The notes beneath the pieces are model-generated. The model made no database searches, had not been told where the DNA came from, and saw nothing but the letters and a program-made list of their open reading frames with translations. From Streptomyces canus (GTDB lineage Bacteria; Actinomycetota; Actinomycetes; Streptomycetales; Streptomycetaceae), in the NCBI RefSeq assembly GCF_001514145.1, contig NZ_KQ948664.1:178523-242522 (forward strand): DNA of 64,000 bases. The letters are read 5' to 3'. Below are positions 7,463-36,337 of this stretch, piece after piece. The position numbers and the translations under genes are program-made. Each line of letters opens with the position of its first letter. Position 1 is the stretch's first letter.

Positions 7463-7619
7463 GTCTTCGGGGTCGTGAACCAGTGAGGCCTGTTGTTCTG
7501 TGGAGAAATCCACCTCTGTGGACAACTCCGTTACCTCTCCGAGTGACCCGAGAGGCTTTCGGTCGCGGGGTTCGGCCGCGGCGCGGCCCCGGCTGATGAT
7601 GCCGTGCAGCAGTGAGCGA

Positions 7620-13669: not shown

Positions 13670-14469
13670 TTCATGCCGCCGTAGCCGGCTGTTCGATTCC
13701 CGGCCGGGTTACGGCCTCTCTCCACAGATCCGGTGACTTTTTCCCGTCCACATCCTGGGGACCGCGAAGTTGTCCAGATCACGGTCCACAGGCTCCCTGT
13801 TGAAAGACCATCAGGCCAGGTCAGGTGGTTGTGGATTCGTGGACGAACGATCTCCACAGACTGTGGACAGCGAGAAGATCCACAGGCTGTGCACCGAGTT
13901 GTCCACCGGCAACCCACAGGCCGGGGCCGGTTGTCCCCAGCGATCACCGGGTTCTCCACATGCCTGTCCACTGTTCGGCAACGCGACGCGCCTGATCACC
14001 GGGTCGAGTGAAAGGCGTCACACGAAGGTGCCGGGTTGGGCTGTGGGAAACGTGGGTAAAGCTGGGGACGGCGCTGGGGAGAAGTCGCCTCAGGCTGTGC
14101 ACGGAGTGTGCAGAACTTTCTGTTCTCCACAGATACGCCCGGTTGTCCACCGCCTCCGCCCACAGGGCCAGTGGACAAAATTTCCCCTCTGAGCTGGGAA
14201 AACGGGGTTATCCACGGTATCCACAGCCCCTACTACTACTCCCAACTAGAGAGAGCTGGGAATCCGTTTCGAAGTGGGGCCTGTGCACAACTCGCTGTCC
14301 GGCTCCCGACTGCCCCTCGTCACGACTTGACCCCGAGAGGCACCTACTGTCAGTGGGGTGCGTCAGACTGTTCCCCGGTGTCCTTCCCGGCACAGGGACC
14401 GACGACACCGAGACAGACGACGAAGCCAGGCAGGCCGAGCAGCGCCGGCAACAGCAGGAGGCGGCAACA
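13670..14469. other. oriC: Origin of replication oriC
   Basis: This non-coding dnaA-dnaN interval is packed with DnaA boxes on both strands. Best matches to TTRTCCACA: TTATCCACG 14208-14216, GTATCCACA 14217-14225, TTGTCCACC 13899-13907 and 14143-14151, TTCTCCACA 13952-13960 and 14123-14131. Reverse boxes: 13862-13870, 13829-13837, 14170-14178 and 14282-14290. Weaker ones: TTGTCCAGA 13770-13778, CGGTCCACA 13782-13790, CTGTCCACT 13964-13972, TTGTCCCCA 13931-13939. The only notably A/T-rich pockets are near 14175-14190 and 14228-14260. Many mostly imperfect boxes without a classic AT-rich 13-mer array is the known Streptomyces pattern. Confidence 0.95.
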
Positions 14470-34034: not shown

Positions 34035-34919
34035 ATGAATCAGGAGGCGGGCAGCACGCCGGAGGCCCAGAACCTGCCTGGCTGCTACCGGCACCCGGAC
34101 CGTGAGACCGGCATCCGCTGCACCCGCTGCGAGCGCCCGATCTGCCCCGAATGCATGGTCAGCGCCTCCGTCGGCTTCCATTGCCCCGAGTGCGTGCGCG
34201 ACGGGGGCGGCGGCGGACCCGCTCCGGCCGCGGCGAGGCCCCGCACCCTCGCGGGCGGGACGGTGACGGCCGATCCCAGGCTGTTCACGAAGATCCTTAT
34301 CGGGATCAATGTCGCGGTGTTCATCGCCATCCAGGCCAACGCGTCCCTGGCGGCGGACCTCAGCCTCATCGGTGCCTGGCCGCCGGCGCCGTTCCAGCCC
34401 ACCGAGGGTGTCGCGGACGGGCAGTACTACCGCCTGGTGACCTCGATGTTCGCCCACGAGCAGTACTGGCACATCGGCTTCAACATGCTGAGCCTGTGGT
34501 GGCTCGGCGGCCCGCTCGAAGCGGCCCTGGGCCGCGCGCGCTATCTCGCGGTCTATTTCGTCTCCGGTCTCGCGGGCAGCGCTCTGGCCTATCTGCTGGC
34601 CGATCCGGGTACCCAGACGCTCGGCGCCTCCGGTGCCATCTTCGGCCTCTTCGGCGCGACCGCGGTCCTGATGCGCCGGCTCAACTACGATCTGCGGCCG
34701 ATCATGGCGCTCCTCGTGATCAACCTGATCTTCACCTTCGGCTGGAGCAGCATCTCCTGGCAGGCCCACATCGGCGGTCTGGTTGCCGGTGTCGTCACGG
34801 GGTACGCGATGGTCCACGCCCCACGCGAGCGGCGGTCGCTGGTGCAGTACGGCACCTGCGCGCTGGTCCTGCTGGTCATCGTGGGCATGACGCTGTTCAG
34901 GACCGCCCAGCTGACCTGA
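34035..34919 (+). CDS. Rhomboid family intramembrane serine protease
   Basis: This 294-residue protein starts at ATG 34035. The first 60 residues hold an eight-Cys/His B-box-like zinc finger (CYRHPDRETGIRCTRCERPI, then CPEC, FHCPEC). The rhomboid domain follows, with about six spans. The catalytic Ser is in TLGASGAIFGLFG and the partner His is in SWQAHIGGL. HIGFNMLSLWWLGGPLE is the typical HxxxN loop. Fusion of a zinc finger to rhomboid is common in actinobacteria. Substrate unknown. Confidence 0.92.
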   Translation: MNQEAGSTPEAQNLPGCYRHPDRETGIRCTRCERPICPECMVSASVGFHCPECVRDGGGGGPAPAAARPRTLAGGTVTADPRLFTKILIGINVAVFIAIQANASLAADLSLIGAWPPAPFQPTEGVADGQYYRLVTSMFAHEQYWHIGFNMLSLWWLGGPLEAALGRARYLAVYFVSGLAGSALAYLLADPGTQTLGASGAIFGLFGATAVLMRRLNYDLRPIMALLVINLIFTFGWSSISWQAHIGGLVAGVVTGYAMVHAPRERRSLVQYGTCALVLLVIVGMTLFRTAQLT

Positions 34920-34928
34920 GTCGGCCCG

Positions 34929-35138
34929 TTGTCCACAGTGAGTGCCGGATCTTGTGCATACAGTGCGGGAACAGCTGTGCCCCCTGCCGCTGACCCATGT
35001 TTGAGCAGGTCAGGCAGGGGGCGAACAGGCTTGCGGGGGCTGGTGCGATGGTCGTACCGGCGTCAACGTCCGATGGGTTATCCACAGATCGTCGTCTTTT
35101 CCCCAGGTCCTGTGGAAATTGCTCCAGGCTGTGGATAA
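34929..35138. promoter_or_regulatory. Cluster of perfect DnaA boxes outside oriC
   Basis: Within 210 non-coding bp between the convergent rhomboid and crgA genes lie TTGTCCACA (34929-34937), TTATCCACA (35078-35086) and TGTGGATAA (35130-35138, TTATCCACA on the minus strand). A weaker TGTGGAAAT lies at 35111-35119. These match the consensus better than most oriC boxes. Candidate DnaA-titrating or regulatory site. Confidence 0.75.
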
Positions 35139-35162
35139 CTCAGCGGATACCCCTGGGGAGAG

Positions 35163-35417
35163 CTACTTCCACTGGGTGGAGACGCCGAATCCGGCGGCGA
35201 TGAAGCCGAAGCCCACCACGATGTTCCAGTTGTCCAGAGCGTCGATGGGGAGCGAGCCGTCCGTCACATAGAAGACGACGATCCAGGCGAGCCCGATGAG
35301 GAACATGGCCAGCATCACGGGGGCCACCCACGTGCGACTGGTCAGCTTGATGGCGGTCGCCTGCTTCGCCGGTGGCGGCGTGTAGTCGGCCTTCTTGCGG
35401 ATACGTGACTTCGGCAC
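35163..35417 (-). CDS. crgA: Cell division protein CrgA
   Basis: The 84-residue membrane protein starts with a basic N-terminus ([15 protein letters not shown]) and has two membrane spans (about 31-52 and 62-80) separated by a short loop. CrgA inhibits or coordinates FtsZ ring formation during aerial-hypha septation in Streptomyces and recruits divisome partners in mycobacteria. Start GTG at 35417. It is divergent from the DUF881 gene, and its 3' side carries the DnaA-box cluster. Confidence 0.94.
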
Positions 35418-35557
35418 GAGGGTCTCTCCTGTCGATGCGCTGCGTGGCCGCGCAGGTAACTGGTCGGGCTCGGGGCAGCGTACAAGGGGACACTGAGTGC
35501 TCCCCCGGGCGTCCGTTAGCGTAGTGCTTCCGTAGCGCTGAAGGAGATAAGGGTACG

Positions 35558-36337
35558 TTGAGCAATTCTGCCCACTCACCCCAGTCCGGATCCAGTCCTG
35601 TCCGCAGGCGGGGTTTCCGGCCGGTGAGGGTGCTCACGGTGGCCGTCTTCGCTCTCGCGGGACTCATTTTCTTCACGAGTTTCAATACGGCCAAGGGCAC
35701 CAACATCCGCACGGACGCGTCCCTGCTCAAGCTCTCGGACCTCATCCAGGAGCGCAGCCACAACAACGGTGAGCTCGACGAGTCGAACGGCTCGCTGCGC
35801 CGGGACGTCGAGGCACTCGCCGAGCGCGACGACGGCAGCACCAAGGCCGAGGACGACAAGCTCGCCGCCCTGGAGGACAGGGCGGGCACCCAGAAGATCA
35901 AGGGGAAGGCGGTCACGGTCACGCTCGACGACGCCCCGCCGAACGCCACCGCCAAGCTCCCCGGCTACCCCGAGCCGCAGCCCGACTACCTGGTCATCCA
36001 CCAGCAGGATCTCCAGGCCGTGGTCAACGCCCTGTGGAAGGGCGGCGCGCGGGGGATCAAGGTGATGGACCAGCGGCTGATCTCCACCAGCGCCGTGCGC
36101 TGTGTCGGCAACACCCTGATCCTCCAGGGCCGCGTCTACTCGCCGCCGTACAAGATCCAGGCGGTCGGTGACCCCGGGAAGCTGAAGCAGGCGCTCGCGG
36201 ACTCCAAGGCGATCCAGAACTACATGGTCTACGTCAATGTCTACGGCCTTGGCTGGAATGTCGCCGACGACGGCACGGTGACTCTTCCCGGCTACTCGGG
36301 CACAGTGGATCTGCAGTACGCCAAGCCCGTGGAGTGA
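35558..36337 (+). CDS. DUF881 family membrane protein
   Basis: The 259-residue protein begins at TTG with AAGGAGATAAG upstream. One N-terminal membrane helix (about 25-43) is followed by a coiled-coil (about 55-105, with [20 protein letters not shown]) and a DUF881 domain (about 110-255). DUF881 proteins sit beside divisome and sortase genes in many Gram-positives; role unknown. A 27-bp gap to the next gene suggests an operon with the sortases. Confidence 0.88.

What the first reader, a model, noticed from the sequence alone, without database searches (positions are those of the whole stretch)
34929..35138. Cluster of perfect DnaA boxes beside crgA, 21 kb from oriC
Three 9-mers match TTRTCCACA exactly within 210 bp of non-coding DNA, both strands represented, plus one weaker box. 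The oriC in this window has no better boxes. The spot lies between convergent genes, so promoter control is unlikely for the rhomboid gene. Known precedent: DnaA-box clusters outside oriC that affect initiation timing have been described in S. coelicolor. Titration, or a link between replication and septation through crgA, is inference.
Basis: partly seen in the sequence, partly recalled or inferred. Interest (0 to 1): 0.6.

Follow-up and report, generated by a model that had tools for sequence, protein, structure and literature searches.

The report
Ancient DnaA-box cluster beside crgA
A short non-coding stretch near the replication origin carries several landing sites for DnaA, the protein that starts DNA replication, and a similar arrangement next to the cell-division gene crgA recurs in many families of the same old class of bacteria, mycobacteria among them.

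Summary
Confirmed: three exact TTRTCCACA boxes in the 243-bp gap between the convergent rhomboid and crgA genes, ~21 kb from oriC, which has none. About 6e-5 such triplets are expected genome-wide. 198 of 199 Streptomycetaceae loci have at least 2 exact boxes 3' of crgA. Outside the family 42 of 68 loci from 35 families have an exact box within 250 bp; reversed motif 0 of 68. A pheA-serS cluster (probably S. coelicolor D78, recalled) was found only within Streptomycetaceae, so oriC proximity alone does not explain this. In 45 of 68 loci a second palindrome (AATTACACnnnTGTAATTC-like) sits at fixed offsets from the boxes; similar sites lie before whiB2 and nrdR. In mycobacteria the same gap is one of five main DnaA sites, its mutations resemble dnaA mutations, and neither flanking gene changes expression in dnaA mutants (Hicks 2020, passages), which argues against DnaA control of crgA. 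Best reading: an ancient off-origin DnaA control site, probably S. coelicolor's cluster H69 (recalled). Titration versus DnaA nucleotide switching is undecided. I found no description of the class-wide conservation or the palindrome in the papers I could search.

The parts
34929..34937 (+). distal DnaA box TTGTCCACA (box C)
   Evidence: exact match; 8 of 9 columns at least 0.97 conserved and the ninth 0.96 in 104 distinct close relatives
35078..35086 (+). DnaA box TTATCCACA (box B)
   Evidence: exact match; all 9 columns 1.00 (rounded) in 104 rows
35130..35138 (-). DnaA box TTATCCACA (box A, crgA-proximal)
   Evidence: exact match; all 9 columns 1.00 (rounded) in 104 rows
35111..35119 (-). weak DnaA box ATTTCCACA; in many relatives a second box lies here in tandem, 12-13 bp from box A (19 bp in this genome)
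   Evidence: two mismatches; exact same-strand (+) pairs are 12 or 13 bp apart in 39 of 42 counted
35097..35105 (+). weak box TTTTCCCCA; in several other genera of the family it directly faces the tandem pair
   Evidence: two mismatches; sequences of L141-L160
34952..34960 (+). weak box TTGTGCATA; TTGTGCACA in many relatives
   Evidence: two mismatches; one-mismatch lists
35051..35066 (-). conserved block TTGACGCCGGTACGAC, the possible Streptomyces form of the second palindrome
   Evidence: TTGACGCCGGT columns 0.92-1.00 in 104 rows; once per genome, beside crgA, in 6 of 8 genomes searched; relatives of the block match TTACACnnnTGTAA at 7-9 of 11 positions, and the window itself has no match of 9 or more
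34979..35022 (.). G+C-rich inverted repeat, probably the shared terminator hairpin of the two convergent genes
   Evidence: arms located; fold of 34920-35162 z = -3.46; the T-run terminator scan calls nothing here
35163..35417 (-). crgA (84 aa cell-division protein)
   Evidence: ORF; PF06781, E = 5e-30; NCBIfam cell division protein CrgA over cut-off
34035..34919 (+). rhomboid-family membrane protein gene, convergent with crgA
   Evidence: ORF (start chosen by me); PF01694, E = 2.5e-35
13770..14290 (.). oriC box array downstream of dnaA, for comparison; no exact TTRTCCACA, 11 with one mismatch
   Evidence: DnaA C-terminal domain match ends at C9:192047 = window 13525

Best explanation
The gap 3' of crgA is a dedicated off-origin DnaA-binding control element, inherited since early in the class. 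Shown here: exact boxes kept at restricted spacings over the family and present beside crgA in most families sampled. Shown by others for mycobacteria: strong DnaA binding in vitro and in vivo. Inferred: several DnaA molecules bind cooperatively to the facing boxes and pack or loop with the distal box about 149 bp away. Because the site is copied soon after initiation, its two new copies take up DnaA or change its state just after oriC fires and so damp further initiations. It thus acts on DnaA activity rather than on crgA transcription. Whether it works by simple titration, by promoting ATP hydrolysis (datA-like) or by nucleotide exchange (DARS-like) is not decided.
For: At least 2 exact boxes in 198 of 199 Streptomycetaceae loci; an exact box in 42 of 68 loci from 35 other families, reversed-motif control 0 of 68. 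Box columns 0.999 conserved against 0.807 for the rest of the gap in 104 rows. A-B distances fall in 31-35, 41-47 and 52-57 with none at 36-40 or 48-51 in 195 loci; the same gaps hold in the 154 loci with a single + box. B-C distance is 148-149 in 115 of 182 loci counted. The Rv0010c-Rv0011c gap is one of five highly enriched DnaA regions by IDAP-seq with M. tuberculosis DnaA, and ChIP-seq in M. smegmatis found homologues of the same five; site mutants have longer cells as dnaA mutants do, and expression of the two flanking genes is unaltered in dnaA mutants (PMC7738170 passages). Two later papers describe S. coelicolor clusters as repressing untimely initiation (PMC10950094; PMC4585315); both speak of clusters in general, not of this one.
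Against: No DnaA binding or replication data for this genome. The recalled S. coelicolor phenotype belongs to D78, not to the crgA cluster. A pure titration site need not keep such geometry or a second palindrome. 26 of 68 loci outside the family lack an exact box within 250 bp and 7 lack even a one-mismatch box. In the f30, f19 and f36 genomes G376, G455, G326 and G478 neither the crgA side nor the rhomboid side has a box. The distance groups may partly reflect which of two tandem slots 12-13 bp apart holds the exact box, and the loci share ancestry, so phasing is suggestive only.
Confidence: 0.55

Rival explanations
1. DnaA bound at the 3' end of crgA controls crgA output in cis (transcription roadblock, termination, mRNA 3' end or antisense), coupling replication state to septation.
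For: The element more often stays with crgA. In ten loci of nine families where the rhomboid gene is not adjacent, no box (one mismatch allowed) lies within 640 bp 3' of the rhomboid match (L350-L354, L356, L360, L361, L363, L365), while the crgA side has exact boxes (f4, f9, f10, f15, f35) or only one-mismatch boxes (f13, f17, f18, f28). CrgA is described as a septation inhibitor (PMC4255298 passage).
Against: In M. [quoted passage not shown] In G310, G327 and G389 boxes and palindrome lie beside the rhomboid and not beside crgA. The sigma-70-type scan found no promoter-like site in 34700-35700; other promoter types were not covered.
Confidence: 0.2
2. The gap is a joint operator: a second regulator binds the palindrome and DnaA binds beside it, forming one complex; the same regulator also governs whiB2 and nrdR. 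WhiA or WhiB-type factors are candidates.
For: Palindrome (at least 9 of 11) in 45 of 68 loci, 25 families; boxes with up to two mismatches pile up at +14/15, +25/26, +28 and +37/38 against about 0.2 per offset elsewhere. Other genomic copies lie before whiB2 in ten genomes and before nrdR in one, the latter with a one-mismatch box right behind it as at crgA (WhiB and NrdR names checked by models). nrdR is a WhiA target in S. venezuelae with a GACAC motif, and treZ has GACGC motifs (PMC3781837 passages).
Against: crgA does not occur in the main texts of the WhiA and WhiB ChIP-seq papers. The palindrome is only partly recognisable in Streptomyces, where the block was seen only at crgA. Of 32 distinct sites in 36 genomes found with a looser pattern, 6 are at crgA, 8 at whiB2, 2 inside dnaA and 16 I did not assign. 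No binding protein is known to me.
Confidence: 0.17
3. A part or relic of the replication origin itself (a second origin module that helps oriC).
For: Strong boxes near oriC; bipartite origins exist in other bacteria (PMC4285127 passage).
Against: crgA-dnaA distance ranges from about 9 kb (G380) to 177 kb (G425) among genomes where both lie on one contig, too loose for an origin module. No search for an unwinding region was made.
Confidence: 0.05
4. Chance cluster without function.
For: None found.
Against: Conservation beside crgA with no exact hit for the reversed motif and about 6e-5 expected triplets.
Confidence: 0.01

Closest known systems
S. coelicolor DnaA-box clusters H69, H24 and D78 (Smulczyk-Krawczyszyn 2006, PMC1595370, not held; names and content recalled)
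   Same: DnaA-box clusters outside oriC but near it. By recalled cosmid names H69 should hold crgA (SCO3854, PMC4255298 passage) and D78 pheA-serS; the pheA-serS gap of this genome has four exact boxes including a tandem pair (Pfam names).
   Different: That H69 is the crgA gap rests on recall. The crgA cluster reaches across the class, whereas the pheA-serS cluster was found in 11 of 14 Streptomycetaceae and 0 of 16 others.
Rv0010c-Rv0011c DnaA interaction site of mycobacteria (Hicks 2020, PMC7738170; outline, abstract and passages read)
   Same: Same place, 3' of crgA (Rv0011c, recalled). Two Mycobacterium-type loci here (L204, L240; type judged by recall of the next gene) carry palindrome, facing boxes and an exact TTATCCACA between crgA and an ORF starting MQQT. 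DnaA binding shown in vitro and in vivo.
   Different: The paper's main text holds no mention of Streptomyces, actinobacteria, crgA, whiB2 or nrdR. In those loci the downstream gene is codirectional with crgA; here it is convergent.
E. coli datA and DARS; B. subtilis DnaA-box clusters
   Same: Non-coding DnaA-box clusters off oriC that tune DnaA (passages).
   Different: No IHF site or nucleotide-switching activity tested; box layout not compared base by base.

Membership tests
Streptomyces off-origin DnaA-box cluster (H69/H24/D78 kind) | several strong DnaA boxes in non-coding DNA near but outside oriC | tested here: met
Streptomyces off-origin DnaA-box cluster (H69/H24/D78 kind) | conserved among relatives | tested here: met
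   198 of 199 loci
Streptomyces off-origin DnaA-box cluster (H69/H24/D78 kind) | identical locus to H69 | not testable with these tools
   primary paper not held; cosmid content recalled
Streptomyces off-origin DnaA-box cluster (H69/H24/D78 kind) | binds DnaA and affects initiation frequency | not testable with these tools
   needs ChIP, gel shift and deletion
mycobacterial Rv0010c-Rv0011c DnaA site | lies directly 3' of crgA | tested here: met
mycobacterial Rv0010c-Rv0011c DnaA site | cluster of facing DnaA boxes | tested here: met
mycobacterial Rv0010c-Rv0011c DnaA site | adjacent TTACACnnnTGTAA-like palindrome (seen here in L204 and L240, not a feature named in the paper) | tested here: inconclusive
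   9 of 11 in L204 and L240; mostly 7-8 of 11 in Streptomyces, on the other side of the boxes
oriC | about 19 boxes beside dnaA with an unwinding region | tested here: not met
   3 exact and 3 weak boxes, about 21 kb away; unwinding region not searched
datA (DnaA-ATP hydrolysis site) | IHF site and stimulation of DnaA-ATP hydrolysis | not testable with these tools
   needs biochemistry; no IHF-site model applied
DARS (DnaA reactivation site) | defined three-box core and ADP release | not tested
   layout not compared with E. coli; activity needs biochemistry

The most novel reading that the evidence does not exclude
The crgA gap carries one ancient composite element of this bacterial class: a palindrome for a still unidentified cell-cycle regulator, shared with whiB2 and nrdR promoters, locked at fixed distances to a facing DnaA-box array. 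It joins division or dNTP state to DnaA activity, and it is the reason why the corresponding mycobacterial site affects cell length and drug susceptibility.
Probability: 0.3. Interest if true: 0.8.

Novelty: new member of a known kind. Interest (0 to 1): 0.6.

Why it matters
Control of DnaA outside oriC is poorly understood in actinobacteria. If the crgA gap is one conserved element, the mycobacterial site tied to isoniazid tolerance and the Streptomyces cluster become the same problem, which can be studied in harmless Streptomyces. The second palindrome offers a handle on an unknown regulator that may link division genes, dNTP supply and replication.

Tried and rejected
Phage DNA: no megablast match for 34700-35600. 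RNA families: only three tRNAs in the window, none in the gap. Sigma-70-type promoter in the gap: none, so a promoter for a small RNA is not supported. Strict anchoring to crgA: rejected after G310, G327 and G389 showed the element beside the rhomboid gene. Simple oriC proximity as the cause: weakened by the pheA-serS contrast; that contrast is imperfect, since L317 and L318 are distant SerS relatives and pheA adjacency outside the family was not checked. MtrA as palindrome binder: its motif is a direct repeat (PMC6265350 passages), so unlikely. WhiA/WhiB remains a guess. Helical phasing: the Rayleigh values do not correct for shared ancestry, and tandem slots 12-13 bp apart can mimic the steps. 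The 12 genomes were mostly picked because their crgA-side palindrome was good, so '10 of 12' there is not an unbiased rate. Of its 22 distinct sites, 10 are at crgA, 6 at whiB2, 1 at nrdR and 5 I did not assign. Two matches lie inside dnaA coding sequence (L272, L275).

Paper searches: ten. In one search two listed papers hold all four of dnaA, crgA, Streptomyces and 'DnaA box'; the passages I saw do not join them. Listings were capped and subscription papers are mostly absent, so this is weak evidence of novelty.

Full report
Observation. They lie in the 243-bp gap between the stops of a rhomboid gene (34035-34919) and crgA (35163-35417, minus), which converge (names by Pfam). Three weaker boxes with two mismatches lie among them. 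oriC at about 13770-14290 has no exact box and 11 with one mismatch. In the whole 11.57-Mb genome there are 72 exact boxes against 24 for the reversed pattern. Three in 210 bp are expected about 6e-5 times, and 15 of 72 fall in a post hoc 160-kb span around oriC where 1.0 is expected.

Conservation in the family. A CrgA search found the gene in 196 of 199 Streptomyces genomes. I examined the 3' side of crgA in 30 of these (the best matches), 80 named genome contigs, 30 divergent Streptomyces, 40 of intermediate distance and 20 loci from 16 other genera of the family. Of 199 loci counted, 147 have 3 exact boxes, 38 have 4, 13 have 2 and one has none in the 420 bp (first 110 loci) or 600 bp (others) examined. 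The exception, L156, has three at 672-735. The sample leans to near relatives and holds six duplicate pairs. In 104 distinct close relatives the 27 box columns average 0.999 identity against 0.807 in the rest of the gap.

Architecture. Read from crgA the order is box A (+), a tandem slot usually 12-13 bp on, a facing weak box, box B (-), then box C (-), 148-149 bp further in 115 of 182 loci counted. The A-B distance takes values 31-35, 41-47 and 52-57 and none between in 195 loci. The same holds for the 154 loci with one + box. This fits insertions of whole helical turns, as expected if DnaA molecules must sit on one face of the helix, but part of the pattern may come from which tandem slot holds the exact box; I call it suggestive. 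A hairpin between B and C probably terminates both genes.

Depth. Outside Streptomycetaceae I first took 39 loci from 32 families. 23 have an exact box within 250 bp 3' of crgA, against 0 of 39 for the reversed motif there, 0 of 39 in crgA itself, 1 of 39 in the 300 bp upstream and 0 of 39 at 250-1200 bp downstream. A second set of 29 loci, adding three families, gave 19 of 29 against 0 of 29. Together 42 of 68 loci from 35 families have an exact box; 61 of 68 have one with at most one mismatch, against 18 of 68 for the control. These 68 are part of the 176 non-family genomes with a CrgA match. The crgA-dnaA distance varies from about 9 kb (G380) to 177 kb (G425) among cases on one contig. By contrast, the pheA-serS gap on the other side of oriC has at least two exact boxes in 11 of 14 Streptomycetaceae and none in 16 others.

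Anchor. Where the rhomboid gene is no longer next to crgA, the boxes mostly remain with crgA: ten loci of nine families, exact in five families and one-mismatch only in four. In G310 (exact boxes), G327 and G389 (one-mismatch boxes) they remain with the rhomboid, and crgA has none within 250 bp. In G376, G455, G326 and G478 neither side has any. The element is therefore a locus in its own right at the old crgA-rhomboid junction, and it can be lost.

Second element. Beside the boxes lies a palindrome, best described as AATTACACnnnTGTAATTC. In the first 39 loci 27 score at least 9 of 11, against 1 of 117 control windows and 9 of 780 shuffles. In the second set 17 of 29 do. With 300-bp segments it is 45 of 68, from 25 families. 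Boxes with up to two mismatches sit at fixed offsets from it: + at 14/15 (32 counts) and 28 (11), - at 25/26 (14) and 37/38 (30), against about 0.2 per offset elsewhere. A genome-wide search in 12 genomes, mostly chosen for a good site at crgA, found 22 distinct sites: 10 at crgA, 6 before whiB2, 1 before nrdR and 5 not assigned. A looser pattern in 36 genomes found 32 distinct sites in 21 genomes: 6 at crgA, 8 before whiB2, 2 inside dnaA and 16 not assigned. whiB2 copies come from ten genomes in all (L243, L250, L254, L260, L261, L263, L264, L265, L276, L282). The WhiB family is confirmed by Pfam for L243 and L254; the subtype WhiB2 is my recall of its signature. NrdR in L245 is confirmed by an NCBIfam equivalog, and there a one-mismatch box follows the palindrome as at crgA. 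In Streptomyces the nearest equivalent is TTGACGCCGGTnnGAC, found once per genome beside crgA in 6 of 8 genomes. It matches mostly 7-8 of 11 positions and lies on the other side of the boxes, so homology is uncertain.

Literature. The mycobacterial equivalent is known. Hicks et al. 2020 (PMC7738170; outline, abstract and passages read) mapped DnaA by IDAP-seq and, in M. smegmatis, by ChIP-seq and found five main regions, one of them Rv0010c-Rv0011c. Mutations there recur in clinical isolates; those tested lengthen cells and give intermediate isoniazid resistance, like dnaA mutations, and neither flanking gene changes expression in dnaA mutants. Rv0011c being CrgA is recalled; my Mycobacterium-type loci L204 and L240 agree in layout. 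They describe a palindrome made of two DnaA-box-like sequences, which fits the facing box pair best; the second palindrome abuts it, and the passages I saw do not separate the two. The S. coelicolor clusters H69, H24 and D78 are recalled (primary paper not held); two later papers state that such clusters repress untimely initiation. S. coelicolor DnaA is said to bind a single box only weakly (PMC4285127 passage), which fits the need for a cluster.

Verdict. A real, ancient, very probably DnaA-binding control locus. It is ordinary in kind and probably already listed as H69 in one species, but it has class-wide depth, restricted geometry and a co-conserved palindrome that I did not find described. 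How it acts on DnaA is inferred.

Noticed in passing
L201 6687-7000 (genome contig C9:110687-111000): Four exact boxes (two in tandem 13 bp apart) in the pheA-serS gap, probably the S. coelicolor cluster D78 (recalled); at least two exact boxes in 11 of 14 Streptomycetaceae and 0 of 16 others.
   Followed up: partly
L201 18387-18440 (C9:122387-122440): Two facing exact boxes 25 bp apart plus TGATCCACA between a MerR-family regulator gene and a KptA-family gene.
   Followed up: no
window 7499-7525: TTGTCCACA and TTCTCCACA 18 bp apart, about 100 bp from a GTTTCACGTGAAAC (parS-type, recalled) site; possibly cluster H24 (recalled name).
   Followed up: no
L371, L372, L373 (genome G289): Three crgA matches within about 20 kb, alternating in orientation, each with its own four exact boxes; duplication or assembly artefact.
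   Followed up: partly
L243, L250, L254, L260, L261, L263, L264, L265, L276, L282; L245: TnACACnnnTGTnA palindrome before a whiB2-type gene in ten genomes and before nrdR in one; unknown regulator.
   Followed up: partly
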